NCBI GenBank assembly: GCA_963922205.1 | Contig: CAWUHX010000220.1 | Location: 248,001-312,000, forward strand | Reading direction: 5' to 3' | From: Romanomermis culicivorax | Taxonomy: Eukaryota > Nematoda > Enoplea > Mermithida > Mermithidae | Length of the DNA stretch: 64,000 nucleotides | Shown here: positions 1 through 46,400 of the stretch, piece by piece | Layout: each line of letters begins with the position of its first letter | Position numbering within the stretch: position 1 is the stretch's first letter | Translations under genes and position numbers: made by a program | Notes under the pieces: model-generated | The model's database searches: none | Seen by the model: only the letters and a program-made list of their open reading frames with translations | Told to the model about the DNA's origin: nothing

Positions 1-71
1 ATACATTTAAACGAATACAGCGTGAAGCAAAAATTGAAGCATTTAAGCAGAAATCCCATCGTAAACCAAGA

Positions 72-1544
72 ATGACCCACCAAACGCAAGATCATTTAGG
101 AGAAATCGTTAGAGAACAGATAAACGATTTATTTTCAGAACATTTTCGTACTCTACGCACACAATTGAATCAGAATACAGTAAACCCTACCCTAATAGAC
201 GATCTAAGAACAGCAAACATTCGTAATAACATGGCAAACAATTTCTACGCGAAACCTACAGTATTCACGGGCGGCGTGACCCAACATTTTGGTGAATGGA
301 ACAAAAGATTAGAACAATTCATGGCACTCCAAGGCATGAAAGATACAGACGTACAGTTAAAGTTGGCATGTTTAGAAATTCATTTAGGAGGAGCCGCGTT
401 AGCAAAATTCAAAAGTTTAGCAAATTCCGAAAATCCTCCCCACACATACGAGCAGTATAAAGTCGCATTACAGGCATTTTTCCCAAACAATAGAGATAAT
501 GAGCTACATCAACAATTCTTACGCGAAAGAAAACAGAAGCGATCAGAAACAGTAACGGAATTCTTATTTGATCTAGAACATCTCGCAACCCTCGCCTACC
601 CTAATTTTAACACAGACGCACGAGAAATGATCATAAAACCCCTCTTTGTAGAAGGCATGCAAAACGAAATCAGGGAAGCAATTAAGTATAGAAGGTTCGC
701 GACTCTAAAAGAAATGTCAGATGAAGCAGCTTACATTGAACAGCAAATTCTTAGAAATGAGTTAAAGTCCAACACCCTTCCCTTCATACCCCCAAAACCC
801 GAACCCATCTTTTCCCTAACCAAAAATACAGACCAACAGGATCTTTTGCATCAGTTAGAACAACAAGTAAAAGATTTACAGTTGCAGATCAAGCAAAAAC
901 CTCAACCCCCACCACAGAGTAGCTACAACAATTTCAGTAACAATACTTTCAGCAGGAATAATGCTTACAGGAACAACACCACCCCTAGGCAACCCACATG
1001 CTTCCAGTGTGGACAAATCGGTCACGTAGCTCGTAATTGTAAATCAGTAGGTACCCGAAAATCATGTGAAATCTGTTTCCGTAATAATCACAGTACACGT
1101 GATTGTAAAAGCCGATGCATCCACTGCTCCCAAACAGGACATAGATCAGATAACTGCCTTTCAAAACCCTACTCCAATTTTCAATGTTTCACATGCAAGC
1201 AGAGAGGTCACACAAGCAGGTATTGCCCAAATCAGCAGAGTCGTAATATTCAAAATTGCATTGAGTACAGGCAACCCCAACCCCTCATGGACATTGACGA
1301 CCCCGCATTTTACTCAAAATTACCCGCCATAACTAACGGCCCTCAGACTACTTTAGGAACTATCATGCCCAACACCCACCGCCGTAGCGACGAATACGTC
1401 CTTGATCTGGACGTACCCGATTGGTGCGCCATGTCACCACCCCCCACGCCTGAAGCCGAAAAAATCGAAAAATCGCCGCCCACCATCCCCGTAGGCTACA
1501 AGATCCCCCGAAAGCAAGACACAACGCCGCCCACCGCCCCCTAA
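72..1544 (+). CDS. gag: Gag polyprotein of LTR retroelement (capsid and four-knuckle nucleocapsid)
   Basis: The protein of at least 490 aa is the structural Gag that would form the particle and bind element RNA. Residues about 70-240 match the retrotransposon capsid pattern: a W-rich start (GEWNKRLEQF), a LA-LHL-GAA-KF segment, then a FFP...LR-RKQ region and a helical EF-FDLEHLA segment. A Gln/Pro/Asn-rich linker follows. Four CCHC zinc knuckles (C-x2-C-x4-H-x4-C) begin near residues 310, 332, 349 and 372. The C-terminal tail is Pro/Thr-rich. The frame stays open upstream of this ATG to the first bases of the window, so the true start may lie outside; position 72 is only the first ATG visible. 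It ends at TAA (1542-1544), and the same frame is open again immediately after. Confidence 0.9.
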   Translation: MTHQTQDHLGEIVREQINDLFSEHFRTLRTQLNQNTVNPTLIDDLRTANIRNNMANNFYAKPTVFTGGVTQHFGEWNKRLEQFMALQGMKDTDVQLKLACLEIHLGGAALAKFKSLANSENPPHTYEQYKVALQAFFPNNRDNELHQQFLRERKQKRSETVTEFLFDLEHLATLAYPNFNTDAREMIIKPLFVEGMQNEIREAIKYRRFATLKEMSDEAAYIEQQILRNELKSNTLPFIPPKPEPIFSLTKNTDQQDLLHQLEQQVKDLQLQIKQKPQPPPQSSYNNFSNNTFSRNNAYRNNTTPRQPTCFQCGQIGHVARNCKSVGTRKSCEICFRNNHSTRDCKSRCIHCSQTGHRSDNCLSKPYSNFQCFTCKQRGHTSRYCPNQQSRNIQNCIEYRQPQPLMDIDDPAFYSKLPAITNGPQTTLGTIMPNTHRRSDEYVLDLDVPDWCAMSPPPTPEAEKIEKSPPTIPVGYKIPRKQDTTPPTAP

Positions 1545-1835
1545 ACCCCATCGAAAACAGGTCGCAACTTATTATCCCTCTTACACGGCCTGACCCCTGA
1601 ACCCTACCAATTCCGCCCCCGCCAAACACTTCTACCAACCCCCGCAAGTAAGCAAGTCCAAACCCCATCTTATAACTCACCCTCTAAACTTTTACAGAAT
1701 GTTCAGATTGCAAACCGGCCACCCCCCCCCCAGCGCAAAACCGCAAAACGACAACACCAAAAGCCCCAACACCAAACCAGCCACAACGAAAACATACAGT
1801 GCCCCGCCGCCTCCACTAAAACATTCTATTGGCCG
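1545..1835 (+). other. Open in-frame spacer between gag stop and env-pol ATG, with splice-like signals
   Basis: I read every codon from 1545 to 1835 in the gag frame and found no stop, so gag and env-pol share one frame and are parted only by the TAA at 1542-1544. The 97 codons are extremely Pro/Gln/Asn/Thr-rich and C-rich (for example a run of C at 1722-1731). The spacer also contains AAGTAAGC (GT at 1648), a good splice-donor match, and CTAAAC plus TTTTACAG ending at 1697, a good branch-point and acceptor match. The acceptor lies 138 bases before the env ATG and could create a subgenomic env mRNA. No expression data can be inferred from this. Confidence 0.6.
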
Positions 1836-4800
1836 ATGTTTTGTATTTTTCTTTGTATAATAATCCCCACATCGTGTAGTGCCCAATTTCAGATGTGTGG
1901 AACTTCATTGAGCGGTCACTCAGTCAGCATACCAAAACTTGTATCATGCATGCCCCCTTCCACAGTAGACAAACCCGTACAGACATTCGGAAAAATCTAT
2001 ATCCCCTCCACTAAACCCCACATTACAGACGCATACAAATGCAGTGTTCGCAAACGCAAAATTTGTACTAATACAGGATTTTTTGGATCAAAAGGTATTG
2101 TCTTCGACCAAACCGAAATGCAAAATCTAACCCCACATGTTTGTAAGGCAATCGTTATAGACAAAGAACACAATGGTCAAAAATTATACGAAACCCAACC
2201 AGGATTTTGGTCAACAAATAACTCCCTAAGCGTAGAATACACATGGTGTTGTACAGACCATTGTACCTCGGTCACTAACGTCATCATAGAAATAGGACAA
2301 ATAGCATCTTGGAATGGAAAATCTATGACAGGTACATTAGGCGACCTAGGGTCATGCAAACCGACATCAGGTCATGTTGTCACAGCCGACGGATCCATTA
2401 TCTGGAATGAAACAGCATTTGAAAACTTATGCCCCTTCGAATACAAAAATACACATCCCATAAAACTCACGCCAACCCACATGATAATAGAAGAGCTACA
2501 AGGTGCATTCTCGGTTAAAAATACAGTTTTTTCGAACCCCAATTGCCCAGAAATCCAAGACAGCATTCTAACCGAACAAGGCATTATCGTACAATTAGAC
2601 AAAAGCACCCCACATCGTAATGCATTTTTAACCCCAACAACCAACGAAACTCATACTACACTATACGATTTTGAACCCATCAATGCAAAACTAAACTATC
2701 TTGCAGACAAAATACAGGAATTCGAAATTCAAAATTTCAAAAATGAATGGAATGAATTATGCAGACAGGCACAGCGTCACCTTGATCTCGTATGGCAAAT
2801 TTTACGTCTTGATGCAACCCTTGGAGCACGTGCATTCCTACAGCGAACGGACATCATAGCAGAATTCACAGGAGAAGCCCTCACAGTCTGGCCCTGTAAA
2901 CAAGTAAATGCATCTAAAATCTTTTACAACCACAAAATCAACCAAACATGCTACAAACTTTTGCCCATCCTCGTAGGAACCGAACTCATGTTTTCAAATC
3001 CAGGAGGCAACGATTTGACCCCTTTTTCGCAAACCGTTGACTGCCATCACATGCATGTAGCCCTTTACAAACAGAATAATACATGGGTCAGTGAAACAGG
3101 ATCCCCGCATGTCACAAATTTACCCTTAGAAATTGTCTGGAACCAAAATTTTTCCCTTTTCCATTTTAATACACCCGCCATTTTTCATGATCAACTTGCA
3201 ACTATTTCAACCAACTTACTCTTTTTGAAACAATACATTTACAAAACTCACACACTCGAAAACATTGTCAAAAAACTCTTCAATTACACCGCCCAAATGT
3301 CTCTCAATTCCGATACAGTTTACAACATGATCTCAGGCACTGGCCAAGCACTCGGAAATACACTCTCTGGCGCCGGTCAAGGCATAGAACATGTAATAAC
3401 CGGTACCACCCAAAGTCTCACCGACGGATTAAACAATTTACTCAAAGGACCCCTGCAATTCATTATCAATCTCGCCGTTATTACTGTAGTTATTGCAGGC
3501 GTCTTTTATTCATTTCTCATTCTTCGAAAATATTTCCCCTTTCCAAAGCATCATGCCACAAACGAACATGCATACGAAACACCATCAAACAACAGACATT
3601 TACATGAGACCATCCCCCCGTCATTTGGCCATGCTCTCTTAGAATTAGCTAATCGTCGTGGGGCACAAACACAGCAGAAATATGTCCTTGTCGATATTGA
3701 TACCCCCCGAACTCCTGCAATCGAACTCATTAATCAAATTCACCAATCTGCATCAAATAAGCCACCCCAAAATGTACCTGAGAAACATACCCCTCATATT
3801 CCAATCACACTTAATGGCAAATTAATGACAAAAGGCATGATTGACACTGGTGCAGTTTACTCACTCATTGATTCCCGAATCGCTCAACTTTTACAGTTAG
3901 ACATGAAACCCCCGCTAGTCCAAGCAAAAGCAGCAAATAATCCTCCCATTCACTTTGTGGGAACCACTTTTGTCACAGTAACAGCCCAAACAATCCAAGA
4001 AACAATCATGGTCCATGTCCAAAAAGATTGTACAGCAGACATCCTTCTAGGCAAAAACTTTCTCAGTCGATTTTCGGAATACACTATCAACAATCAAAAA
4101 TCACAGGTCAAATTTGGCAATGTTATACTACCTTGTGATGGCCTAGAATATAGCCCTCTTTCAACCCGTGGTGGAACTTATCTAGACGAGAAATTAGAAT
4201 TACCACCCCGTACAGTAACCGAATTTACTGTCCCCTTGCCCAAATCGTACCTACAAGTTAAACAGCTCGAATTCACTCCGAAACCCAAACAGAATCCCAA
4301 AGTCCATTTCGCAGCTTGTATCTCAGAAAACCAAAACAGTCGCATACGCATATCGGTCCTAAACACACAAGAAACAGCTCAAATTCTTTACCCTGGAACA
4401 TGCATTGGTACAGTCTCTTGTTACATCCCGAAACAAAATACTCCCGCTAACGTAACCCCTTCCACACAAAACCAGCCCAACCGTTTTGATACATTCACAT
4501 GGTTAAAAGAAAATGTCAATTTAACCTCCAGTGACCTCACAGAAACTGAGAAAATGCAACTCCTACGCGCCCTATCGAAGTACCCTACATTATATGCTAA
4601 ATCCAAAATGGACGTAGGCAGAACCACCCTCGTTTCACATACAATTGACACCAATGGCTCCCAACCCGTACGTAGACAACTTTATCGGACTTCCCCAAGA
4701 GAAAAGCAAATCATACAAGCAGAAGTTGAGCAACTCGCAGCAGCAGGTGTCATAAGCCAAAGCAATTCTCCGTGGTGTACCAACACAGTTTTAGTCCCCA

Positions 4801-7295
4801 AAAAAGATGGAGGCCATCGTTTATGCATTGATTTTCGAGGCCTCAACAAAGTCACAAAAAAAGATACCTACCCCTTGCCCCGGATAGACGAAATCCTAGA
4901 CACCCTTCGTGGAATGAAATATTTTACGTCCCTTGACCAATCCAATGCATACTATTCCATTCCCATAGCACAAGCAGACAGAGAAAAAACGGCCTTTAAT
5001 TGCTCAGCTGGCCAGTATCAATTCAATTACCTCCCCTTTGGACTCACCAATGCCCCAGCCACATTCCAAAGGTTAATGGATGTTATTCTTTCGGGTCTGC
5101 AATGGAACACATGCCTTGTATATCTCGACGATGTTTTGGTATTCGCAGACTCCCATGCCCAAATGCTGGAGTGTTTAGACACTATTCTTGCCCGATTCTC
5201 ACAAGCAGGCCTTAAGCTAAACATACAAAAATGCAAATTCTGCCAGCCCCAAGTCCAATACTTAGGCCACGTCATTTCCCAGCAAGGCATTTCACCAGAT
5301 CCCCATAAGGTACAGGCCATTTATGACATACCCACACCCAAAAGCTCAAAAGAAGTCAAGTCATTCCTTGGCCTACCTTCATATTATCGCAGATTCATCC
5401 CAAATTGCTCCCAAGTTTCTAGCCCACTCACATCGCTACTCAAAAAGCATTCTGAATTTTCCTGGGGCCCTGAACAGCAAAATGCATTCACTAAGCTAAA
5501 AGAATTACTCATTCATGCCCCAATACTGCAGCACCCCGATTTCACAAAACCGTTTATTCTGCAAACCGACGCCTCAAAACTCGGAATCGGCGCCATTCTC
5601 AGTCAGCTAGATAGTAAAGGTCAGGATCGCCCCATTGCTTTTGGAAGCCGAACACTAAAACCCGCAGAACGCAACTACCCGATAACTGAGTTGGAAACCC
5701 TTGCAGTAGTCGAATTTGTCAAGTATTTCCGCCCCTATCTTTTCCAGCAACATGTTATTGTACATACTGACCACACAGCAGTTCAGGCAGTCTTACAAAA
5801 GGAAAACCCGTCCCCTCGCATTGCCCGTTGGGGATTAGCCCTCTCTGGTATTCAACTCGACATTCGACCTAAGAAAGGCACTGCTAACCGCAATGCAGAT
5901 GCAGTTTCTCGATTCCCCTCACAGACAGCAAAGCAATCCTTTGATATTGAGCAATTAGAAACCCGCCCCGAAATATCAACTATCAATTCAGTTTTGGAAG
6001 CCGAAGCAACTGAACAAGAAGAGCAACAGAAAAACTTTGCCGAACTCCAACGCACTGATCCAACTGTCAAAAGTATTTTAGCAAAAATTGCCCAAAAACA
6101 CCCCCTTACTCTGATCAAATTCGACGTGCATCAAAACATTCTCTTCCGTATAGTCGACAAACAGGCAAAACTATACATCCCCAAGTCCCAAGTCCAGCAT
6201 CTCATCGCCTCACATCATGACAGCAAATTCACAGGTCATTTTGCGGCCCGGAAAACTTTACACTTGCTCAGACAGAAATATTTTTGGCCCCAAATGAGCC
6301 GGGATATCAAACGTTACTGCAAAACTTGTCACCCATGCCAGACACAGAAAGCCCTCCAACACAAAGTGCATGCAAACTTGGTACCAATTCAGCCGACTGG
6401 CCCCTTTGATAGAGTCGGTGTTGATTGCATGGGACCGTTACCCCTCACAGAAGACGGCAACCGATTCATTGTCGTTTTGATCGATTATTTCACAAAGTAT
6501 GTAGAGGCATTCCCGACCCCTGACATCACCGCAGCCACTATTGCCAAGCTATTCGTAACCAAAATTGTTTGCCGTCATGGGTCCCCAAAAATCATCCATT
6601 GTGATCGTGGCACCGATTTCGTATCCGATCTTTTCTCACGGATCACCAGTTTATGCAATACTCAGAAAATTCACACTACCCCATATCATCCCATTGCCAA
6701 TGGGGAAGTTGAGCGTTGCAACCAAACCCTAGCCACCCGTATCCGCATGTACATCAATTCAAATCACACTGATTGGGATACTTATCTCCCATATGCCGTT
6801 TTTTCGATCAATATTCATAAAAATGATAGCACATCATATCCCCCATTTGAATTACTCCACGGGAGGCAAGCTAATCTGCCGTCAGACGCAGCCTTAAACT
6901 TTTTCCCCACGTCCTACATGGTTGATTTAGACGATTACGCCCTTCGTGTAAAATCGCATTTCACAGAAGCCCTCTCAACCGTGCAGAAAAGTTTGCAAAA
7001 AGCCCAAGCCCACTATACCCATCAGTATAACAAGCATGCTCAGAACATACATTACAAGGCAGGTGATCTTATTCTCTACAAAAATCATTCGTGTAAACAA
7101 GGGCTGACTCCCAAATTCCTCCCTCGCCAAAACGGACCCTATACAGTTACAAATTTCATGTACCCCAACGTTACGCTTAAACACCCCCATAAGAATATTA
7201 CATTTACAGTGCATGTAAACGAGACAACCCCTTTCTACCCTCGGAAAGCAGCTAACGAATCTACCCCCACCCCTCCTCAACCTCGAAAGCCTTGA
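1836..7295 (+). CDS. env-pol: Env-Pol fusion polyprotein: signal peptide, envelope glycoprotein, TM, then protease-RT-RNase H-integrase
   Basis: One stop-free ORF encodes 1819 aa. Residues 1-16 are a hydrophobic signal peptide ending in SCSAQ. Residues about 17-540 are a Cys-rich ectodomain with about eight N-glycosylation sequons. Residues 307-356 (ELC...LVWQILRLD...FTGEALTVWPC) have the pattern of class III fusion glycoproteins of the herpesvirus gB/chuvirus type. A Gly/Ser/Thr amphipathic stretch (about 495-540) precedes one membrane helix at about 542-563. After a short tail come the aspartic protease (DTGA at 670-673), RT with YLDD at 1096-1099, RNase H (QTDAS near 1244), the integrase zinc finger (from H1460) and the D1530-D1590-E1626 triad with D,D35E spacing, then a C-terminal region with GPYTV. 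In this topology Pol would lie on the cytosolic side of the membrane. The ATG is chosen because the signal peptide follows it directly. Domain assignment of Pol is certain; the fusogen class is inference. Confidence 0.93.
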   Translation: MFCIFLCIIIPTSCSAQFQMCGTSLSGHSVSIPKLVSCMPPSTVDKPVQTFGKIYIPSTKPHITDAYKCSVRKRKICTNTGFFGSKGIVFDQTEMQNLTPHVCKAIVIDKEHNGQKLYETQPGFWSTNNSLSVEYTWCCTDHCTSVTNVIIEIGQIASWNGKSMTGTLGDLGSCKPTSGHVVTADGSIIWNETAFENLCPFEYKNTHPIKLTPTHMIIEELQGAFSVKNTVFSNPNCPEIQDSILTEQGIIVQLDKSTPHRNAFLTPTTNETHTTLYDFEPINAKLNYLADKIQEFEIQNFKNEWNELCRQAQRHLDLVWQILRLDATLGARAFLQRTDIIAEFTGEALTVWPCKQVNASKIFYNHKINQTCYKLLPILVGTELMFSNPGGNDLTPFSQTVDCHHMHVALYKQNNTWVSETGSPHVTNLPLEIVWNQNFSLFHFNTPAIFHDQLATISTNLLFLKQYIYKTHTLENIVKKLFNYTAQMSLNSDTVYNMISGTGQALGNTLSGAGQGIEHVITGTTQSLTDGLNNLLKGPLQFIINLAVITVVIAGVFYSFLILRKYFPFPKHHATNEHAYETPSNNRHLHETIPPSFGHALLELANRRGAQTQQKYVLVDIDTPRTPAIELINQIHQSASNKPPQNVPEKHTPHIPITLNGKLMTKGMIDTGAVYSLIDSRIAQLLQLDMKPPLVQAKAANNPPIHFVGTTFVTVTAQTIQETIMVHVQKDCTADILLGKNFLSRFSEYTINNQKSQVKFGNVILPCDGLEYSPLSTRGGTYLDEKLELPPRTVTEFTVPLPKSYLQVKQLEFTPKPKQNPKVHFAACISENQNSRIRISVLNTQETAQILYPGTCIGTVSCYIPKQNTPANVTPSTQNQPNRFDTFTWLKENVNLTSSDLTETEKMQLLRALSKYPTLYAKSKMDVGRTTLVSHTIDTNGSQPVRRQLYRTSPREKQIIQAEVEQLAAAGVISQSNSPWCTNTVLVPKKDGGHRLCIDFRGLNKVTKKDTYPLPRIDEILDTLRGMKYFTSLDQSNAYYSIPIAQADREKTAFNCSAGQYQFNYLPFGLTNAPATFQRLMDVILSGLQWNTCLVYLDDVLVFADSHAQMLECLDTILARFSQAGLKLNIQKCKFCQPQVQYLGHVISQQGISPDPHKVQAIYDIPTPKSSKEVKSFLGLPSYYRRFIPNCSQVSSPLTSLLKKHSEFSWGPEQQNAFTKLKELLIHAPILQHPDFTKPFILQTDASKLGIGAILSQLDSKGQDRPIAFGSRTLKPAERNYPITELETLAVVEFVKYFRPYLFQQHVIVHTDHTAVQAVLQKENPSPRIARWGLALSGIQLDIRPKKGTANRNADAVSRFPSQTAKQSFDIEQLETRPEISTINSVLEAEATEQEEQQKNFAELQRTDPTVKSILAKIAQKHPLTLIKFDVHQNILFRIVDKQAKLYIPKSQVQHLIASHHDSKFTGHFAARKTLHLLRQKYFWPQMSRDIKRYCKTCHPCQTQKALQHKVHANLVPIQPTGPFDRVGVDCMGPLPLTEDGNRFIVVLIDYFTKYVEAFPTPDITAATIAKLFVTKIVCRHGSPKIIHCDRGTDFVSDLFSRITSLCNTQKIHTTPYHPIANGEVERCNQTLATRIRMYINSNHTDWDTYLPYAVFSINIHKNDSTSYPPFELLHGRQANLPSDAALNFFPTSYMVDLDDYALRVKSHFTEALSTVQKSLQKAQAHYTHQYNKHAQNIHYKAGDLILYKNHSCKQGLTPKFLPRQNGPYTVTNFMYPNVTLKHPHKNITFTVHVNETTPFYPRKAANESTPTPPQPRKP

Positions 7296-7313
7296 ACGAG
7301 GACCTTCAACTCC

Positions 7314-7326
7314 GGAAGGAGGGAAA
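7314..7326 (+). promoter_or_regulatory. Polypurine tract for plus-strand priming
   Basis: A 13-base all-purine run, GGAAGGAGGGAAA, abuts the TGTAACG start of the LTR and sits 18 bases after the Pol stop. This is the position and make-up expected for the second-strand primer of a reverse-transcribing element. Confidence 0.88.
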
Positions 7327-8219
7327 TGTAACGTACCTGCTAAAGCAGTACTGTAAATATGTAGCATACTGTATGTAATAGACATTTATTAAATGTTATT
7401 TATTTTCACATTTTATCGTCTCAAGGATGTCTGGGATTCACACCCAAACATTCCTACAAAATTACGTGAAGTACTTTATTTTGATCCGTTCACACCCCGG
7501 TAGCCCAATTAAGATGCCCTAATTAATTTGCACAAACGGCAGCTGTTCCCCTAGAACCCACACTAAACTACACATTCCACAGCTACCGTAATCCCCCGTA
7601 AAAATCGTAAACAACACCTGCACACAGTAAGATACGTAGAAGCCCCGCCGTACAGTAGTCTCAAGTGTAACAGTAGCGGCGGCCCCACAAAACATGTGTA
7701 TACAGAGAAACCGATACAGGAAGCATGCACAGAAGCACGAAGGTGTGGCCAAGCCCACCGTAGAAAGCAAGCAAAGCACAGAAAGCATACGGTACCAGAA
7801 AAGCATTAGAGAGGCATAATTAAGAAAGCATAAAAAGCGTAGCAGGAAACGACAATTGGCGGAAGAAGATGGACAGAAGCTCGACCTCCCGCAGCGCCCA
7901 GGGAGTGGCCAAAATCGCCGTATAAAAGAAGAAGCAAAGCGTGATTTATTCATTCTTATTCTTGTGGTTTTTCCGTTTTGACTTTCGCGCTCGCCCCGTC
8001 TTTTTATACATTTGCAAGCGGCCGACTATTCGAAAGCAACTTAAACCGAGGCCCCCGTCCGTACTTTAATTCGAAGCGCGTTATTGTCGACGTTCAAGCG
8101 ACCGTCGATCTCCGTTGTTTATTGTAACCGTTCGCCCGCGCCCCCGTCCCGTTATTTGTCCCCGCCGTATCGACCGATTGGTTAGAAGTAAAGTACCTCA
8201 CACAAATCTGGTCGTTACA
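7327..8219 (+). repeat. 3' LTR of the retroelement, 893 bp
   Basis: It starts TGTAACG directly after the polypurine tract and ends CGTTACA, a perfect 7-bp inverted terminal repeat with canonical TG...CA ends. A TATA box lies at 7921, so U3 covers roughly the first 620 bp. The part after the TATA box is markedly GC-richer with CpG words (CGCGCTCGCC, GCGCCCCCGTCCC). The partner LTR is not in the window, so the right end is deduced from the inverted repeat. The flanking bases after 8219 (AGTGT) would be the target duplication, but its left copy cannot be seen. Confidence 0.88.
7921..7928 (+). promoter_or_regulatory. TATA box of LTR promoter
   Basis: TATAAAAG lies about two thirds into the LTR, followed about 25-35 bases later by a pyrimidine-rich CATTCTTATTCTTG segment that suits a start of the R region. 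It is the only good TATA match I see in the LTR. Confidence 0.6.
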
Positions 8220-8299: not shown

Positions 8300-10130
8300 T
8301 CTTTACAACGTGTTCTAAGTACTTTACTGTTTCACATCTTTCACTTCTACCAAAAGTGAGAATTCATAGCTTTAAGATTGTTTTTTATTCTTTCTTTGAT
8401 GTGAAGATGGCCAAATTTAAAACTTCAATGTGCTTCTATGAAGGTTTTGACGCATGATTGAGGCCCACTAAAAAGAGGTGGACTAGTTGATTAGAAAGTG
8501 CCCCGATGGGGCAGAAAAAAGAAGAACATACTTGCATGGATTGTCGCCAAGCTTGAAAAAGGAGCGGATTAGATTTTTGAGAACTTGGGTTAAAGTTGGA
8601 AAAAACTCACTTTTCTAATATTGGATTTTCATTCTTTCTCATTAAAAAATTTTCAATCTCTGTGAAAAGCAACACACCTTCCAACCACACTTGTGCATCT
8701 CCGAAATTTTGAGGAGGGCAGTTCCTGGTTTTTTGACGTTTTTTGGAACAACAAATTCAAAAAAAGTTGACCAAAAAATTATTTTTCGTACAAAATTTTT
8801 CACTTTCAGAACTTTTGGGTTAGTTTGCACCCCCAGGTCCCCTCTCACACATGTGTCCTTCCAAGTCGTTGAACTTTTATGCTAAATTCAGCGTTAATAA
8901 AACAGAAATCAACCGTGGAAATATGACACATAAAATCCCACTCAGTTTGTTCAGGAGAAAAGAGCACGCAACGTTTTCTTTGAACTAAATTGATTGTGCA
9001 GGATCTACTTAATTCAGTCATTTTATGGTATAGAATTTACTCCGTAAGTTTTACTGATTAAAAGCCGTAAATAAATTTATTCTCTCAATATAAGTACTCG
9101 AAATCAAGTAATCACAAGTGTTTGTTGAAACTATTCAACATCACAGCTTTTGGATTTGAACTGAAATTTGCAGAAAGAGCGTTTTTTGCAGGATTGCAGA
9201 CGGGTAGCAATTTCACCCATCCCGATGGCTCCCGTCCTGCTTTCAAAAAAGGCGTACTGTTGCCGTGGGAGTGCGAGTAGAATGGGGGAGAAGCGGGAAC
9301 CGGATTTGGTACGCACCCCCAATATAGGCGCGGCTGTATCATGAGCTTTTTAATCGAATTTTTGTGTGCCTTACCCTGTTGCTCTACTTGCATATGGTGC
9401 CCAAAGACTGCGACCAAGGCCCAGTGGCACTAAAGGGGTCTATGCTCGAACTCAAGATAGTCTCGAACAAAAAGGCGACTGTTTTATCTCAAGTTTGGTA
9501 TAATTTCAGTGTCATCAGGATTCTAACGAAATCAATATCGAGATTATCCCCAGCCCTGGGTGTCGGGTTGCACTAACATTTTCGCATAATTTTCATATCT
9601 CTAAAGCAAATAAACATAAAAATGTTTGAATTTTCCCAAACTCGAACTTAAATCTCAATATTAGTTAGTCCTGAAGTGAGTATTTGTGCACTGGAAGAAA
9701 ATAATCACGACATTGCGATTAGCTCAAACTGAGGGGGTTGGTGCAATCAACCTCAGGTTTCTTTATAGTTCTGAAAATGACTCCTCCCTCGCTATTTTTC
9801 AGCTAGAGTGAGAGGTAAAGGCTTCGAATCGGTCGGGAGTTAAAATGCCATTGGTTTACCATTTCTATACATTTGAGTGAAGTCAGCGATGGGCATCACT
9901 GCATATAATTTTCATATAGAAAAAATCGTGGTGATGCAAGAGGAAGGACAAAATACACGATGCTGCAGAATATACTTTTTCACAGACATGGAAAATTTTT
10001 TAATGAGAAAGAATGAAAATCAAATATTAGAAAAGTGAATTTTTTCCAACTTTAACCCAAGTTCTCAAAAATCTCATCCGCTCCTTTTTTCTGCTCCATT
10101 GGGGTATTTTCTAATAAACTAGTAATACAT
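8300..10130 (+). mobile_element. Dispersed element E, copy 1 (inverted arms, degenerate ORF)
   Basis: The left arm (about 8300-8660) and right arm (about 9960-10125) are inverted copies of each other: for example, GAAAGTGCCCCGATGGGGCA near 8497 answers TGCTCCATTGGGGTATTTTC near 10092. The whole unit matches the reverse complement of 36362-37990, so this is a dispersed family of about 1.6-1.8 kb. Compared with copy 2 it carries an extra stretch at about 8710-8930. The interior contains, on the minus strand, a small ORF (9417-9112) that is also found in copy 2 but is frameshifted here. I see no transposase. Exact ends and target duplication are uncertain. Confidence 0.65.
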
Positions 10131-25949: not shown

Positions 25950-28360
25950 CCCCCATAGAATTTGGAAAAATCGATTTTCATAATTTGTTCCTAAAACATT
26001 GCAGACTGGAAAAATTGATAGCATCTGAAGGAAGGTTATTCCATATATCGATATATCCGTTACAAAAATCATATAATCTCAAATTGGATTAAACTTTGCC
26101 AGTAATGAGCTTGAAATCATGTTGGCGACGAGTGTTGTCATTAGAATTTAGCGTAAAGAAATCATTTTTGTCAATGCAAGTGTGATCTCTGATAATTTTG
26201 TAAATGCAAGTGTGATCTCTGATAATTTCAGCTATTAGTCTGCGGGTTTCAAGTCGTTCTTGAAGAAGAGCTTTTAGACGTTCTTCATAAGAAAGGCTAG
26301 AGTTTTTACCAAATAATCTCTTGGTAAACTTCCGTTGTACATTTTCGATCAGCAGAATTTCATTCATGTGAAAAGGATTCCACACAGTGGAGCAGTTCTC
26401 AAGTATAGGTCTGACATATGTATTGAAAGATTTAATTAGAACTGATTTATTTCTTGAAGTAAAAGCTTTCAAGATCAAGGAACTCCGTTGGTGAGCTCTG
26501 TTCATAATTGAGTTGATATGATTTTTAAAAGATATAAATTGTGAGAAATAAGCACACCGAGATCTTTGACAGTTTGCTCTTCATGGGGTAAATATCGGCT
26601 ATCCAACTGATAACAATGTATAGGATTAGAATAACCAAGGTGCGGTACTTTACTTTTATCAGGAGAGATATCAAGCTGCCAGAGAGCAGACCAGGCAGAA
26701 ATTCTATCAAGATCCGCTTGGAGAATAATGATTATTAGTAGAGGAGTTGAAAATTTTTACATCATCAGCAAACAAAAACATATTGGACTTGATGTTGTCA
26801 GAAAGATCATTTATATACAACGGGAATAGTGTTGGTCCTAAGACGCTGCCTTGTGGAACACCACTTGTGACAGAAGAGAATTCAGAGAAATTAGTTTCTA
26901 CATTAACTCGTTGGTAGCGTTTTAACAGAAAAGCAGAAATCCAACTTTTAAGGGAATCAGATATACCATAACCTGCTAGTTTAAGTAATAATTTAGAGTG
27001 AGATACAGAATCAAAGGCTTTTTGGAAATCTATGTATACACAATCCAATGAAGTACCACAATCAATATTTCTTGTCCATTCATTTTTACATTTTAGAAGC
27101 TGTAGTTCACAAGATTTACTGGGCAAGAAACCATATTGTTGTTGAGTCGGAAGAGAATTAGATTTCAGATAGCTGATCAGAGAATTGTTCACGATAGATT
27201 CCATAATTTTACAACTAACACAGCAGAGGGATATAGGCCTGTAATTAGAAGTAAGAGACTGATCACCTTTCTTGAAGATTGGTATTCCTTTTGCTTGATT
27301 CCAGAAACTAGGAATTGAAGAAGTTTGGAAGGAAACTTCAAAAATACTGGTTGAAGGAATGGCTAGGTGGTGTGCCAGTTTTTTGTAGAAATATGCACAT
27401 AAACCGCCAGGTCCAAGAGCATAGGAGGAATTCATTTTTCTAATTGCAGTAATGACTAGTTCAACAGAGAATCGCCCAGATGTAAGTTTTGACTTGGTTC
27501 TTAAGGGAAAATCAGGAATAGAACAATCATCAATCTTAAAGACTGATAAGAAATAATCGTTGAATAATCTACTGATTTCTTTTGGATCATGAACAACAGT
27601 ATGGGCATCTTTTCGTATGGGGGGAATTTGACTACTGGTGCTCAATTTAGAGTTTACAAAATTATAAAAGGATTTAGGGTTATTTTTATTTTCTCTTTTT
27701 TCTCTTCAATAGAAGCCTGATGTATTTTTATATTTTTTTCTCTTCAATAGAAGCCTGATGATTAGAGATTAATTTCTTCAAGTGTAAAGAATGAGACTTG
27801 TATTTCAGTTTATCTGCAATAGTTCTAGATGATTTGTACCTTCTCCATAGAGACAACTTTTTAGAGAATGCCTTCTTAATATTTTTAGGATAGCATATTT
27901 CATTTGATCTGGGTTTAAAGAGAGGAGTATGTGCTATAATCATGGGTTTAAGAACATTGAGGAAGGTGCAGTACATATCATTAACATTTGCACATCTGGA
28001 GAAAATGTCTGGCCAAGAAATCAGACTGAGTTTGTAGCCAATTTCTGCATAGTTGGCTTTACTAAAATTCAACGACGGACTCTTTTGACATAGCTTCATT
28101 TTATCAGGTGATAAAATTTTGAAATTAACACAGCAGTGATCACTAGTAGAGAAGGGAGCGGAAATATTAACATCAAAAACTGAGTTGTCACCAAAAACAA
28201 GATCAAGTATGCTATTTTCGTGTGTAGGTTCCAATACAAACTGATTCAAACCTAGGCTTGAGAAGGATTCGAAAAAATTCATATAAATTTCTTCATTGGG
28301 GTGAGATACAGATCTAATCAATTTAGCCTCGGTTAATTAAAATCACCAGAGATGCACACG
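25950..28360 (-). pseudogene. CR1/Jockey-type LINE, 5'-truncated, frameshifted endonuclease-RT protein
   Basis: Read on the minus strand, 28360-27728 holds the end of an AP-type endonuclease: GDFN followed by a stop where the family has an aromatic residue, then LDLVFGDN and the SDHCCVNF motif with its catalytic Asp-His. 27645-26707 holds reverse transcriptase: NYRPISL, YIDFQKAFDSVSH (motif A), SGVPQGSVLGP (motif B) and FLFADDVKIF (motif C). 26710-26089 carries the thumb and C-terminal part (RKFTKRLFG, SYEERLKALLQERLETRRL). The frame is broken at about 27697-27761 by a 40-bp direct duplication, again near 26730, and near 26520; a 29-bp tandem duplication lies at about 26160-26225. The 5' side ends at a MITE near 28367. 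The element is no longer able to make a full protein. Confidence 0.9.
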
Positions 28361-31605: not shown

Positions 31606-34581
31606 ATGTTGACGAGGTTGCAATCCAAACTCAAAGAAGCTCAACAGATTAACGTCCTCGAGCCGTTGACGAACAATCCGGCCGTTCCATGGCCGACCAA
31701 ACGTAAAGCTGTAGAGTCACCCGATCAATTCAACGGGATCAAAATGGCGCCTAAACGCTCGGCATTTTGTGATTTGACTAATGCTTTTCAAAACGTCAAA
31801 ATAACTAATCAGCAACTCAAAAAGGGCGATGGTACGGAAGCGACGAAAAAGTTGACGTCTATCAAAATAGTGGATCAGGTGAAAGTCGTCGGAAAAAAAT
31901 GCGTCGAAGATCAGAAAAAAAAGTCGCCGGCGGTGAAACATGTCGCAAAAGCTAAATCGAAAGAAAATCAACATGACGCCAAAGTGACCAAAGCGAAAAA
32001 ATCCACGATTTCGTCGGCATCTTCGGGTATCATTAGATTTATTTGCACTTGTAATCACTGTTTTAGCTTTTCATTGTGGCTCTTTCGGTCTTCGAGATCA
32101 AAAAGATTCATTCCCCTGCGTTTTGAATGTCAGAATCCTCGTTTTCTGGCCTATGAAAGTCCTTACTTTATCTTAATTTTCCCCAAATGTTGGTCCAAAA
32201 AGGTTCATCAATTACGCCATAATTATCTTCATGCTTATTTTTGCCATTTTTTGTTGGTACTACTTTCGGGAATCAGCATTTATTCTATGTACCATAAATC
32301 TTGTTAGAAGTGCATAATTTTTACTGGATTTTCTTGTCGATTTTTCCGCAAGAAAACGTTTATTCGGGGGAATTTGGCATTAAAGATTAACACAAATGCA
32401 GAGATAGAGTTATTTCGTTCCATGAACATCTTCAAAACTTCTCATATTGATTTTAGAATTTCCGCGTTAGTGAGTGATAACATGATGCCAAATTACGCTC
32501 AATAATTCAAAGAGCAAGTGACCATATGCATGTTAGAGCGTAAAAGCTGTTTTTAATTTGTTTCCATAAGTGGAATACAATTCTAAAGAAATCTTCCTTT
32601 AAAAGGACGCTGTTTGGAATAAGAGAGCTAAAAAATTATGTATAATAGTCAAAAATTGTAGTCTTCCTTATTTCAGGTTGTTCTTCGTATCACAGCAGTC
32701 AATCTTCTTTACTCCACGTTGAAACGAGAATATCGAACGAAAATGTAGAATCTTTGAAGGCCGAAATTCTTTTATCGAATATTCCATCGCCGGCCAATTC
32801 ATTCGCCTCGCCGGCGTCCAAATGTAGTAGTTCGAGTTTCGAATCTATGGAAAAGAGTAGTTTGAACCAAAGCTCGAGTACAGAAACGATGATATGCTCA
32901 TATTTGAGCAATCTGAATTTCTCAAAATCGCATCAGTTGTTGGTAAACGTTGAAGAAAAAGAACAGGAGCAAGAATCACAAAATGTTTTCGAAAGTTCGG
33001 ACGAAAATTGCGCGACTGTGGTGGGAAAAGTGTGCGAAAATGCTGTTCCTGAATACGATTATGATAAAGAAAATGAAATGGATCCTTTCAATGTTCCCGA
33101 ATTCGCTTGGGATATTTTCCAGTATTATAATCAAAGGGAAAATCAATTCAAGGTATATCTTTTCTGAGCAATAAAAACTTGTCCAAACAGGCGCGATACA
33201 AATATCCCATTAAAAATAAACTTTTTCGACTAATGATTTTACGATTCTACGTTGGCTCTCTTCTGCACCTTCTTCGATTTATAGTGTGTTCATCATCAGT
33301 GAAATTTGCATATATTATTCACTTTTGTCCAAAAAAATTGAATCATACTGACATACGGTCGTTTCCCAAAACTTGGACAACCGTTTGTGTTTCAGGTGTC
33401 TGACTACATGCACAAACAAACTACGGTAACTCATCAAATGAGGTCCATTTTAGTCGATTGGATGGTCGAAATACAAGAAAGTTTCGAACTAAATCACGAA
33501 ACTTTGTACCAAGCCGTCAAAATGACTGATCTCTTCTTGGAAAAAAGGGTCGTCGATAAGCGTATGCTCCAGTTAGTCGGCACTGCGGCGCTTTTCATTT
33601 CATCCAAATTCGACGAACGGTGCCCGCCGGCGTGCGAAGATTTTCTTTACATTTGCGACGATGCGTACACGCGCGATCAGTTATTGTCCATGGAACGCGA
33701 TATGTTGAAAATTTTACAATTCGATTTAGGCTTCCCGTTGTCGTATCGATTTTTACGACGTTACGCAAAAACCACCAAACTGGGCATGGAAACTTTGACT
33801 TTGGCGCGGTTTATTTTAGAATCGTCGCTGATGCATTACGAATTTGTATCATACAAAGAAAGCTTGATGGCCAGCGCTTGTTTATTGTTGGCATTAAAGA
33901 TGAAGAATGAAGGGGAGTGGGTGAGTGATGGTTATTGAGAATTTTTGTCATAAATGAGGTTAAATACATAATTTTTGTTGATTTACTTTACCCACAGTTT
34001 TCATATGAGAAAGACAGCAGATGTTTGTCTAAATTCAACAGAAAATCTTCTATTGAAACTCATCGACTCTTATTAACAAGATTTCAAAAAGTTTTGCATG
34101 TGTAAAATTTTCGAAGTCTTGTGAAATCGACCCTTCAGATGTTTTTTACTCGCATTAGATTCCAAAAATTCGCCTGTGTTTCATCAGAAACTACATGCAG
34201 AACGTATTGAGGCCAATAAAAATTAGGATGGAATAAAAAATTGTGAAATCCTCGAAAATTCGGAATTCGAAAATTGTTTCTTTCCCGCTGTGATGTGAAT
34301 ATAGGTTTAATATTGCTTAATTCGAGTCGAAAAATTTTGAATCGAGCAATATATTCTAGGGTGATGTCCACAGAAAGTATTCGGGATATAAAACTGAAGA
34401 TTTGGAGCCAATCACTTTACGGATCAACGATCTGATGGTCAACAGCGGCTCCGATCCCAAAATGTCCCAATTGGTCAATATCAAAAACAAATATTCGCAC
34501 GAAGTATTTTTCCACGTTACTAGCGTTCCGTTTTTGCCTGTTCAAACGACGACGACGGCGCCCAACCAACATGTATCCTAA
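31606..34581 (+). CDS. CCNB3: Cyclin B3, four exons, 547 aa
   Basis: The G2/M-type cyclin that binds a cyclin-dependent kinase and is destroyed by APC/C at anaphase. Exons: 31606-32026, 32677-33152, 33396-33920, 34360-34581; the borders fit GT..AG (TTTCAG, TTTCAG, TTCTAG acceptors) and codon phases, giving exactly 548 codons. The N-terminal part is Lys-rich with a destruction box RSAFCDLTN, which has Phe where other B-type cyclins have Leu, a known cyclin B3 trait. The cyclin core starts near SDYMHKQTTVTHQMRSILVD and contains LVDWMVEIQE, FISSKFDERCPP, DFLYICDDAY and FPLSYRFLRRYAK, all close to the B3 family. The last exon supplies YSGYKTEDLEP and a Thr-rich end. The frame is open upstream to a TTTCAG acceptor at about 31512, so an earlier start in an upstream exon is possible; 31606 is the ATG before the region of clear coding bias. 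Confidence 0.9.
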
Positions 34582-43424: not shown

Positions 43425-46400
43425 GATCAAATTTTCAGAAAGCACTGAGCTATTTCAAAATCATATTTATTTCATGCTTCATATATTCATTTGCAACATT
43501 TATTTGACAAATCTACTTCTTCATTTCATGGTATGAAAATCCCAAAAGATAAAAATTGTGGAGGTGTCAGCCAGGGTTCTGCCCCGGGTAAGCATACCCA
43601 GCAACCCCCTCCCCACCTCAAGAACATTTATGCATCAATCTAGGATGTAAAATTCCTACTCCATACATATGCGAAAATTCCATTTGTAGCCTACGGACTC
43701 TGGCTTTTTTGGTTTGAAAATCACCAGCCAAAGGGCTCCAGGGCCTAAGTTTTTAGGGGCCAAAATTATGTAATTGGAGACTATTCAAGTATAGACTTGT
43801 AACGCACTGATGAAGTTAATTGAATTACATGGATGTTCAATCAGTTGATTCGTATTCAAAAAAATAACTGCCCAAAACATTTCCAACACAATATAAAAGT
43901 TTACTTTAAATTCAACAAATTTTGAATGTACACTTCAAATCTAAAATTGAATGAAATTACAGTAATTCATTAACATGTAAATTAATAAATCAAAATTCTT
44001 ACGACTAAGACCGTAAGAGCCATTTCCAAATTTTCAGCTGCCCAGGCCCATAGATTGACTAAAAAGAGTTCGAAACATTAAATTGATTAAACAGCGATTT
44101 GTTTAGTTAATACAATTTCACCAACATTTGAGCACAAACATGACAAGAAATGTTTCCAATTTTGTCCCAAAGTTCAGGACGATTCAAAGCTTGATCGAAA
44201 TAAGCTGAATTTAGAAAATACGAGTATAACATTACTTTACTTCACTTTCGATACATCAGATCACATATTTTTCTCGATTATATATACACTTAACCTCGAA
44301 TCATGTGTGGAAAAAGCGTAATCCGCCTCTAAATTGCTCTGCATAATTGCGTAATGTAGAAACTTTACCAATGTATTCCCGGGTGCAGACAGATGTACAA
44401 TTGAACTCCCCGACGATTGTTTGTCCTTCATGTTCTGAATTTGAAGAAAAATCAGAAACGTGGTTTCGAAATTCACGCGCTCGATTGGCTATGTCAAATT
44501 GACTTCTTTCAGATCGGACAAAGTTGGTCGTTTCGCCACTAGCAAACATCGCCCCATCCAATACCAAGAATTTATTAAAAGTTCGCAAGTTCGTCGGAAA
44601 TATTGGGCTAGAAATTTTGTCGCCTGGCCCAAATTTTCGTCTTTCCAACCGAATATAGTTCACAGCACTTTAACCTATTGGGAGCAACAAGGCCGACTTT
44701 TCTGGATTATTACACAGAATATAGACGATCTGCACAAAAAAGCCGGTTGTACCCGCGTTACAGATCTACACGGATCGGCTTACAAAGTCAGATGTATGAG
44801 GTGCGATCACGTGGAACATAGGCAGGCGTTCCAAAGTCGTATGCGATTTTTGAATCCATATTTTGATTATAATTCGACTAAAATTGCTCCCGACGGTGAC
44901 GTAGATTTACCCGATGATGTGGTAAGCATTCTGGAAATTATCGTCACTATCTCTCTAGTCCTTTAACTCTTGTCTAGTCTTCCTGAATCCAAAAACTTGA
45001 ATCAAAATCAGTGATGACTCGTTTTCTTTATGGGCACTAAATTGTTGAATGTTAAATTCAACAAATTTACTTCAGATTTCAGTTTGGCTCTAGGAAACAA
45101 TTATCTTCGTATTGATTGTAGTCATTCCCTGATCTTGCAAATAAGATGAGTTAAATATATTTTTAGTTTCAAAACATCAAAAATGATTGTTTTGTTTTTA
45201 TAAGTAATTTTTGTGCAAAAATTATGCTTAAATCGTAATACACATGAAGGGAGCTATGCGGCCTGAGGAAGGTAAAGCGAATTTTTTGTAGATCACCATA
45301 AATCTTAGAGAGGGTCATGGGACAAAAAAATCAATTTCTTGCGCAATAAGTCCGAAGAACGGTTCAAAAAATTGGCATTTTCGAACTATTTTTTATGCAA
45401 AAAAATGTCAATTTTCTTTCAAAAAAACGACATTTTTAGTATTTTTCAACTACAAGGATAGGGTTTCTTATGGCTAACCCATTTCAGCCATATGATTGGT
45501 AAATTTTTAAAAGAGTTTTCTTAATTTTTTAATTAAATTTTTAATTTTAATCAAATTTTAATTTTAATTAAAAATTTTTAAATTAAAATTATTCAGCGAT
45601 TTCGGCTGTTTTTTATGGCACCTCCTATTATATGTATGGTTGTTGATAATAATTGTGTGAAAGCAAAAAAAAAGTTTTTGAATCTGATGTGTATTGTCAA
45701 TCAATTTATATGTACTTCTCAACGTAAAATTTTCTACTGAAACTGATGGCTAGAAAGTAAAACACGAAGTGAATCAGAATAATTACCGCACTAAAGTCAT
45801 AAGAACCATGCCTGTAAGAAGTCCGAAGAATTGGGAGGGGGTCCCAAAAAAGTCGATAAAATTTCGAAAATTTTCCTAATAAAAGCCTAAAAGACACATT
45901 TTTCCACATTTTTACTGGAAAAATGAAAAAAATGAAAATAAAATTTTAAAAATAAATAATACAATGAAACGTCGGTGATTTGAAGTTCAAAGTTGAGATG
46001 ATTTTTTACTTTTAAAAAATTATTTTAGAAAATGAAATTTAATTCATGTCTTTTCTTCGTTTCAGATCGAAAACTTCGTTTTACCCGGCTGTCTTCGATG
46101 CGGCGGCGACGTCAAACCGGGCATAGTTTTCTTCGGCGACAACGTTTCCTCCGACGTCGTAGAATTTTGTAACGATAAGATCGATACGGCCGACGCCCTA
46201 TTGATTTTGGGCACGTCGATGAGCGTCTATTCCGGTTACCGTTTCGCTAAACGTTTCAGCGAACGGTCGAAATCGATTTTCATTATCAACATAGGCGCCA
46301 CGCGCGCCGACTCTTTAGCCAGAATGAAAATTTCGGCCAAATGCGGCGACGTCGTGCCACTTTTGAAAATGACGCACGAAAATTATACGGCTTTGCCGTT

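What the first reader, a model, noticed from the sequence alone, without database searches (positions are those of the whole stretch)
1836..7295. Envelope gene fused in frame upstream of Pol (gag-env-pol order)
In retroviruses and env-bearing Gypsy elements the envelope lies after pol and is made from its own mRNA. Here a signal peptide, glycoprotein ectodomain and membrane helix (residues 1-563) are followed, with no stop, by protease, RT, RNase H and integrase. All catalytic motifs are intact (DTGA, YLDD, D,D35E), so the arrangement belongs to a functional-looking element and not to debris. I know of no described family with this order.
Basis: partly seen in the sequence, partly recalled or inferred. 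Interest (0 to 1): 0.9.

Follow-up and report, generated by a model that had tools for sequence, protein, structure and literature searches.

The report
Retroelement with envelope fused before Pol
This virus-like jumping gene in an animal-like genome carries its membrane-fusion (envelope) protein in front of, and joined in one reading frame to, its copying enzymes, the reverse of the usual retrovirus order, and a distant relative shows the same joined arrangement.

Summary
ORF 1836-7295 (1819 aa, no stop) encodes signal peptide, glycoprotein ectodomain and membrane helix, then protease, RT, RNase H and integrase. Gag lies upstream (72-1544), a 3' LTR downstream (7327-8219). The envelope is of chuvirus/mononegavirus (class III) type (PF24664, 4.8e-17; weak gB profile hits); Pol is Ty3/Gypsy. 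An assembly join is unlikely: P0010, a 1750-aa protein from a JGI contig, has env, PR, RT, RNase H and IN in one chain at 35-65% identity and falls in the same RT clade (SH-aLRT 99). Best reading: Env-Pol is one type I membrane polyprotein with Pol on the cytosolic side, later cut by its own protease. That is inferred; transcripts, splicing and cleavage were not testable. Ten library searches led to no description of this order, but most listed papers were not opened and the main survey of envelope-carrying Gypsy elements was not held. New variant of a known kind.

The parts
72..1544 (+). gag: capsid-type domain and CCHC zinc knuckles; frame open upstream to the window edge, so the true start may lie outside
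   Evidence: Pfam zf-CCHC 6.9e-9, Retrotrans_gag 1.2e-5; open frame upstream
1542..1544 (+). TAA, the only stop in the gag-env-pol frame from base 3 to 7292
   Evidence: frame count
1545..1835 (+). A/C-rich stretch open in the same frame, with no in-frame ATG
1836..1883 (+). signal-peptide-like N-terminus of Env, 16 aa (cleavage point judged by eye)
   Evidence: sequence and hydropathy; aligned hydrophobic segment in P0005
1884..3437 (+). Env ectodomain, chuvirus/mononegavirus-type fusion glycoprotein
   Evidence: PF24664 over 2670-3149; 36% identity to P0005 over 98% of Env; the 15 Cys after the signal peptide are all Cys in P0005
3438..3524 (+). membrane-spanning segment at the end of Env
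   Evidence: Kyte-Doolittle peak 2.36
3525..3800 (+). linker between membrane segment and protease, in frame
3801..4070 (+). aspartic protease, DTG at 3843
   Evidence: PF13975 6.9e-9
4794..5276 (+). reverse transcriptase, YLDD at 5121
   Evidence: RVT_1 1.4e-29 and 1.1e-12 on two overlapping pieces; Ty3 nearest solved structure
5463..5846 (+). RNase H
   Evidence: PF17919 9.4e-39, PF17917 2.2e-37
6177..6713 (+). integrase: H2C2 zinc domain and D,D35E core (6423, 6603, 6711)
7293..7295 (+). stop codon of the env-pol ORF
7314..7326 (+). purine-rich tract directly before the LTR
   Evidence: sequence
7327..8219 (+). 3' LTR, 893 bp, TGTAACG...CGTTACA, TATAAAA at 7921; boundaries by motif, as the 5' LTR is outside the window

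Best explanation
A Ty3/Gypsy LTR retroelement lineage acquired a class III type fusion glycoprotein of chuvirus/mononegavirus kind between gag and protease and makes it as one Env-Pol polyprotein. The signal peptide sends the chain to the ER, the ectodomain goes to the lumen, the membrane helix stops transfer, and the joined Pol stays on the cytosolic face. Gag is made separately in excess. Pol is thereby brought to the budding membrane by its Env anchor instead of by a Gag-Pol fusion, and the element's protease frees the enzymes from the tail of Env. Shown: order, frame, domains, a relative with the same join. Inferred: translation as one chain, topology, co-packaging, cleavage.
For: One 1819-aa ORF with no stop; between 1545 and 1836 there are two ATGs in any frame, 1699 (another frame) and 1836, the start of the signal peptide. 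P0010 has the same env-PR-RT-RNase H-IN chain: env 40%, PR 47%, PR-RT stretch 35%, RT 62%, RNase H 65%, IN 47% identity. P0011 has a hydrophobic segment at aa 31-66, before its PR. RT/RNase H clade of 6 rows at SH-aLRT 99; P0010 pairs with P0014 (98) and the window lies with P0009, P0011 and P0012 (85), so the join is old or arose twice. No splice donor with 6 or more of 7 consensus bases in 1-7300. A type I glycoprotein leaves its C-terminus, hence Pol, in the cytosol (established topology of such proteins, recalled). Env shares the strand bias of gag and pol (GC skew -0.25 against -0.22 and -0.29; 109 overlapping windows of the flanking DNA range -0.15 to 0.15).
Against: No RNA or protein data. 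The absence of strong donors is weak: 115 of 300 random sequences had none either (mean 1.05), the flanking DNA holds only 1.7 per 7.3 kb on the + strand, ten weaker donor-like sites (5 of 7) are present, and the leader is outside the window. P0009, in the same clade, has gag, membrane-like segments and pol in one chain with no Env ectodomain detected, so Env is not kept by every member, or P0009 is a spliced product. P0005 has Gag and Env in one chain with no Pol behind it. N-glycosylation sequons are only slightly denser in Env (8 in 563) than in Pol (12 in 1256).
Confidence: 0.55

Rival explanations
1. Splicing separates the functions: Pol comes from an mRNA in which Env is removed as an intron, or Env-Pol comes from a leader-spliced subgenomic mRNA, as Pol does in foamy viruses.
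For: Env of insect Gypsy viruses is made from spliced RNA (PMC12992720, passages); foamy virus Pol is made from a spliced mRNA (PMC7828637, passages). A TTTTACAG acceptor-like site at 1690-1697 and a C-rich one ending at 1733 lie before the env ATG, and a looser acceptor-like pattern occurs at 3637, between Env and PR. Ten donor-like sites reach 5 of 7, two of them (1099, 1648) upstream of Env. P0009 could be such an env-free product, since its source label (lgn) does not say DNA or RNA.
Against: No donor with 6 or more of 7 consensus bases in 1-7300; the stricter pyrimidine-rich acceptor scan gave no site between 3524 and 3801. The env-pol frame needs no splicing to stay open.
Confidence: 0.2
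2. The element makes a single Gag-Env-Pol polyprotein, with the TAA passed by readthrough (or being a lesion of this copy), so the Env signal peptide is internal, as in flavivirus polyproteins.
For: Only one stop in 7.29 kb of frame. P0005 joins Gag and Env in one chain with no Met between 216 and 546, and 546 lies inside the hydrophobic signal-like segment at 522-553. P0009 runs gag to pol in one chain.
Against: The 97 open codons after the TAA are not strongly unlikely by chance (141 of 2000). P0005 may be a spliced gene model. In the window a Met stands exactly at the signal peptide, as expected for separate initiation.
Confidence: 0.18
3. Env no longer acts in entry; its membrane part anchors the polymerase or the particle to membranes inside the cell.
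For: P0009 has membrane-like segments but no detected Env ectodomain in the same place. P0015 and P0023, outside the clade, also have a hydrophobic segment before PR.
Against: All 15 Env cysteines after the signal peptide are Cys in P0005 at 36% identity, which suggests a folded secreted domain under selection.
Confidence: 0.1
4. Assembly join or debris of two elements.
For: Only one locus seen; the host genome search did not complete, and no raw reads were available.
Against: The same join in P0010 from another source; intact motifs; like strand bias over gag, env and pol.
Confidence: 0.02

Closest known systems
Envelope-carrying Gypsy elements (errantiviruses; iERVs such as ZAM, gypsy)
   Same: Ty3/Gypsy Pol, LTR, gag, a captured viral envelope; type III glycoproteins are mentioned for mosquito gypsy elements (PMC13172572, passages)
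   Different: There Env is a third ORF typically made from spliced RNA (PMC12992720, passages) and insertions are listed in the order GAG, POL, ENV (PMC13172572, passages); here Env lies before Pol and is joined to it
Anakin (BEL/Pao with a chuvirus glycoprotein, mosquitoes)
   Same: LTR retroelement with a chuvirus-type glycoprotein (PMC7642597, passages and section 16)
   Different: BEL/Pao Pol rather than Gypsy; the text that I saw does not state the glycoprotein's place in Anakin
Foamy viruses (Spumaretrovirinae)
   Same: Pol not made as a Gag-Pol fusion, so a special packaging route is needed (PMC7828637, passages); for the window this is inference
   Different: [quoted passage not shown] here Pol is joined to Env
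Cer1 of C. elegans
   Same: Nematode Gypsy element; gag and pol in one frame, there without a stop between them (PMC10309623, passages)
   Different: [quoted passage not shown]
Flavivirus/alphavirus polyproteins (recalled)
   Same: Capsid, internal signal, envelope and further proteins in one chain crossing the ER membrane, if the single-polyprotein rival is right
   Different: RNA viruses without reverse transcription; enzymes of other kinds

Membership tests
Ty3/Gypsy (Metaviridae) | Pol order PR-RT-RNase H-IN with Ty3-like RT | tested here: met
   nearest solved structures are Ty3 (3.2e-88 and 9.4e-88)
Ty3/Gypsy (Metaviridae) | LTRs with TG...CA ends on both sides | tested here: inconclusive
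   3' LTR 7327-8219 seen by motif; 5' LTR outside the window
Ty3/Gypsy (Metaviridae) | gag with CCHC knuckles upstream of pol | tested here: met
Errantivirus-type envelope-carrying Gypsy | env as a third ORF downstream of pol | tested here: not met
   Env at 1836-3524, before and joined to pol; the ORF ends at 7295 and the LTR begins at 7327, leaving no room for another env
Errantivirus-type envelope-carrying Gypsy | env made from a spliced subgenomic RNA | not testable with these tools
   no RNA data; no strong donor in 1-7300, leader outside the window
Class III viral fusion glycoproteins (chuvirus/mononegavirus/gB type) | sequence homology to the family profile | tested here: met
   PF24664 4.8e-17, above its cut-off (61.6 against 27 bits); BDV_G 0.0013, below its cut-off
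Class III viral fusion glycoproteins (chuvirus/mononegavirus/gB type) | class III fold | tested here: inconclusive
Flavivirus-like single polyprotein strategy | capsid, envelope and enzymes translated as one chain | tested here: inconclusive
   one frame, one stop; translation not testable

The most novel reading that the evidence does not exclude
A retroelement lineage that makes capsid, envelope and polymerase in one frame as a membrane-threaded polyprotein, in the manner of flaviviruses, with Pol delivered to the particle as the cytosolic tail of the fusion glycoprotein instead of as a Gag-Pol fusion. No such expression strategy is known to me for any reverse-transcribing element.
Probability: 0.2. 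Interest if true: 0.92.

Novelty: new variant of a known kind. Interest (0 to 1): 0.8.

Why it matters
Envelope-bearing retroelements have been described as gag-pol-env, with Env typically from a spliced RNA and Pol packaged through Gag. A lineage with Env joined ahead of Pol would need another way to package Pol, to time its protease and to set the Gag:Pol ratio. It would also show that a glycoprotein capture can be built into the polymerase gene and persist: the window and P0010 lie in different sub-branches of one RT clade. Annotation that looks for env only after pol could miss such elements.

Tried and rejected
Cyclin, SIR2 and ATP synthase c exon-like ORFs say animal-like eukaryote (inference); an Env fragment 52% identical over half of Env, P0006, is labelled Romanomermis culicivorax by its source, which hints at a nematode but does not show it.

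Viral contigs: three scans (Env, P0010, alignment A1) gave no relative. Genome contigs: one scan gave one RT-only match at the end of a Proteobacteria MAG contig, L001; its neighbouring 1106-aa ORF is GGDEF/EAL and L001 matches none of the gag, env or protease queries. It was set aside.

PHROGs gave only a 0.2 hit.

P0005 as proof of a Gag-Env polyprotein: not accepted, since it may be a spliced gene model. P0009 as proof of Env loss: not accepted, since it may be an RNA-derived contig; its middle part (388-666) had only chance-level matches to Env-bearing proteins (best E 1.4, to P0010).

Membrane segment before PR as a clade mark: 5 of 35 proteins with 60 or more residues before the PR motif reached 1.6 (120 of the 185 hits were listed, and the other 85 of the 120 were dropped for lack of a PR motif or of upstream residues). 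Two of the 35 rows (P0078, P0085) were mis-sliced by my script and should not count, so 5 of 33. Two of the five (P0015, P0023) lie outside the clade, so the mark is not exclusive.

Tree: 119 rows, the window and 118 of 120 listed proteins; P0016 and P0126 dropped for short cover; quick method; no named Gypsy reference clades were available, so no clade name is given. blastp mapping used 25 of the 124 proteins returned by the searches.

Literature: most papers in the search lists were not opened, for instance all but one of the 33 papers found (25 listed) and all but one of the 8; one search was a title look-up with a loose minimum and is no novelty test.

Full report
The ORF at 1836-7295 exists as described: 1819 codons from ATG to stop, with no interruption. 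Its first 563 residues were read and scanned apart from the rest. They begin with a short hydrophobic signal-like stretch (MFCIFLCIIIPTSCSA), hold a large cysteine-bearing domain and end in a 29-residue hydrophobic stretch with a Kyte-Doolittle peak of 2.36. Pfam places aa 279-438 in PF24664, viral fusion glycoprotein of Monjiviricetes, at 4.8e-17, and gives a sub-threshold hit to the Borna disease virus G protein. [quoted passage not shown] The nearest solved structures for RT-RNase H are those of Ty3.

Surroundings: gag with CCHC zinc knuckles is at 72-1544. Its frame is open back to the window edge, so the start may lie outside. After the ORF stop a purine tract leads into an 893-bp LTR, 7327-8219, with TGTAACG and CGTTACA ends. 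The LTR ends were set by motif, since the 5' LTR is not in the window. No second copy or fragment was found in the remaining 55.8 kb of the window by blastn or tblastn at 1e-3. The host genome could not be searched.

From base 3 to 7292 this frame has a single stop, TAA at 1542, while the other two frames have 116 and 130 in the first 7330 bases. The 97 codons between that stop and the env ATG are open, but a random sequence of that A/C-rich make-up stays open in 141 of 2000 draws, so this stretch on its own says little.

Is it more than one odd locus? The pol part was searched against 5.8 billion proteins; 185 hits passed 1e-150, of which 120 were listed. One of those 120, P0010, also bore the precomputed PF24664 domain. 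It is a 1750-residue chain from a JGI contig of 8629 bases; it starts inside Env with no Met. It maps onto the window as env 40%, PR 47%, PR-RT stretch 35%, RT 62%, RNase H 65% and IN 47% identity in that order. P0011, which also starts with no Met, has a hydrophobic stretch at aa 31-66, before its PR, but too little sequence ahead of it to show an ectodomain. P0009 has gag (34%), then about 280 residues with two hydrophobic stretches and no detectable Env, then PR to IN in one chain. An RT-RNase H tree of 119 rows puts the window, P0009, P0010, P0011, P0012 and P0014 in one clade (SH-aLRT 99, quick method); within it P0010 pairs with P0014 (98) and the window lies with the other three (85). 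Hence the join either predates that split or arose twice. P0017, in the wider set of 18 rows (96), has its gag-like match running up to its protease motif at 580, with no hydrophobic stretch in the 240 residues before it (highest 0.66). That suggests, from one outgroup, that the insertion is derived.

The envelope itself was searched twice. In the size range of fused proteins only P0005 was found: 1186 residues, a gag-like part (28% over about 200 residues) and then Env at 36% over 98% of its length, ending in a cytoplasmic tail with no pol. It has no Met between 216 and 546, and 546 lies inside the hydrophobic signal-like segment. In the range of free envelopes three fragments were found, P0006-P0008, at 52, 40 and 39% identity over 50, 63 and 54% of Env; P0006 is labelled Romanomermis culicivorax. 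All 15 cysteines after the signal peptide are Cys in P0005, and 5 of them (174, 199, 309, 354, 372) in all six aligned sequences. A profile of the six hits herpesvirus gB chains first, but only at 0.016-0.068, and Env alone hits no solved structure. I take the envelope to be class III type on the Pfam evidence, with the fold untested, since structure prediction was off.

Age in the element: Env has a strand bias like that of gag and pol (GC skew -0.25, -0.22, -0.29), while 109 overlapping windows of the flanking DNA, of the same length, range from -0.15 to 0.15. It has therefore probably been copied with the element for long, and is not a recent patch.

How it most likely works (inference from here on): the only ATGs between 1545 and 1836, in any frame, are at 1699 (another frame) and at the signal peptide, so ORF2 can be started there on a message whose leader is outside the window. 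Env goes through the ER membrane as a type I protein; its C-terminus, and so Pol, is left in the cytosol, which is where Pol must act and where Gag assembles. The anchored Env-Pol could bring Pol to the budding site, and the element's protease could free it. This would remove the need for a Gag-Pol fusion. Splicing is the chief rival: insect Gypsy Env and foamy virus Pol are made so (PMC12992720 and PMC7828637, passages). Against it, no donor with 6 or more of 7 consensus bases lies in 1-7300, but 115 of 300 random sequences also had none, and ten weaker sites are there. Acceptor-like sites lie before the env ATG (1690-1697, 1733), and a looser one at 3637 between Env and PR. The single Gag-Env-Pol polyprotein is the boldest reading; P0005 and P0009 speak for joined frames upstream, but both may be products of splicing.

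Comparison with what is known: of the papers found, passages (and for some an outline or one section) of eleven were seen: PMC12440569, PMC5408684, PMC10084718, PMC12992720, PMC13172572, PMC12859917, PMC10309623, PMC7642597, PMC3118150, PMC11952523 and PMC7828637. Where the passages give a position, envelopes or extra ORFs lie after pol (PMC5408684, PMC7642597 for Roo, Tas and Cer-7, PMC10309623, PMC13172572), or small fusogen-like ORFs lie before gag or, in some Lepidoptera, after pol (PMC11952523). None of the passages describes an envelope joined ahead of pol. PMC10084718 states that it found no clear capture of such glycoproteins by Gypsy elements, while PMC13172572 notes type III glycoproteins in mosquito gypsy elements. 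Ten searches were made; those for 'gag-env-pol' with retrotransposon and for six direct phrasings returned nothing. Most listed papers were not opened. The survey that matters most, Chary and Hayashi in eLife, is not held, so the claim of novelty is limited.

Verdict: observation confirmed; reading of the gene order supported; expression mechanism open. New variant of a known kind, with a less likely reading that would be a new expression strategy for reverse-transcribing elements.

Noticed in passing
window 26089-28321, minus strand: ORFs of a non-LTR (LINE-type, by eye) retrotransposon, RT domain 4.9e-28 in 26707-27645, with neighbouring ORFs of like kind at 26089-26505 and 27728-28321.
   Followed up: no
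window 8556-8668 and 9977-10089: 113-nt inverted repeat, 96% complementary, 1308 nt apart, just after the LTR; may be a terminal-inverted-repeat element.
   Followed up: no
window 33387-33938, 44460-44966, 59331-59693: Exon-like ORFs of host genes: cyclin, SIR2, ATP synthase subunit c.
   Followed up: no
protein P0009 (no window coordinates): Clade member with gag to pol in one 1903-aa chain and two hydrophobic stretches but no Env where Env should be.
   Followed up: partly
protein P0023 (no window coordinates): Gypsy-type protein (35 member sequences) outside the clade with a strong hydrophobic segment before PR, a dUTPase domain and a chromodomain.
   Followed up: partly
protein P0007 (no window coordinates): Env relative deposited as a Gammaproteobacteria MAG protein on a 1383-base contig; probably eukaryotic contamination.
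   Followed up: no
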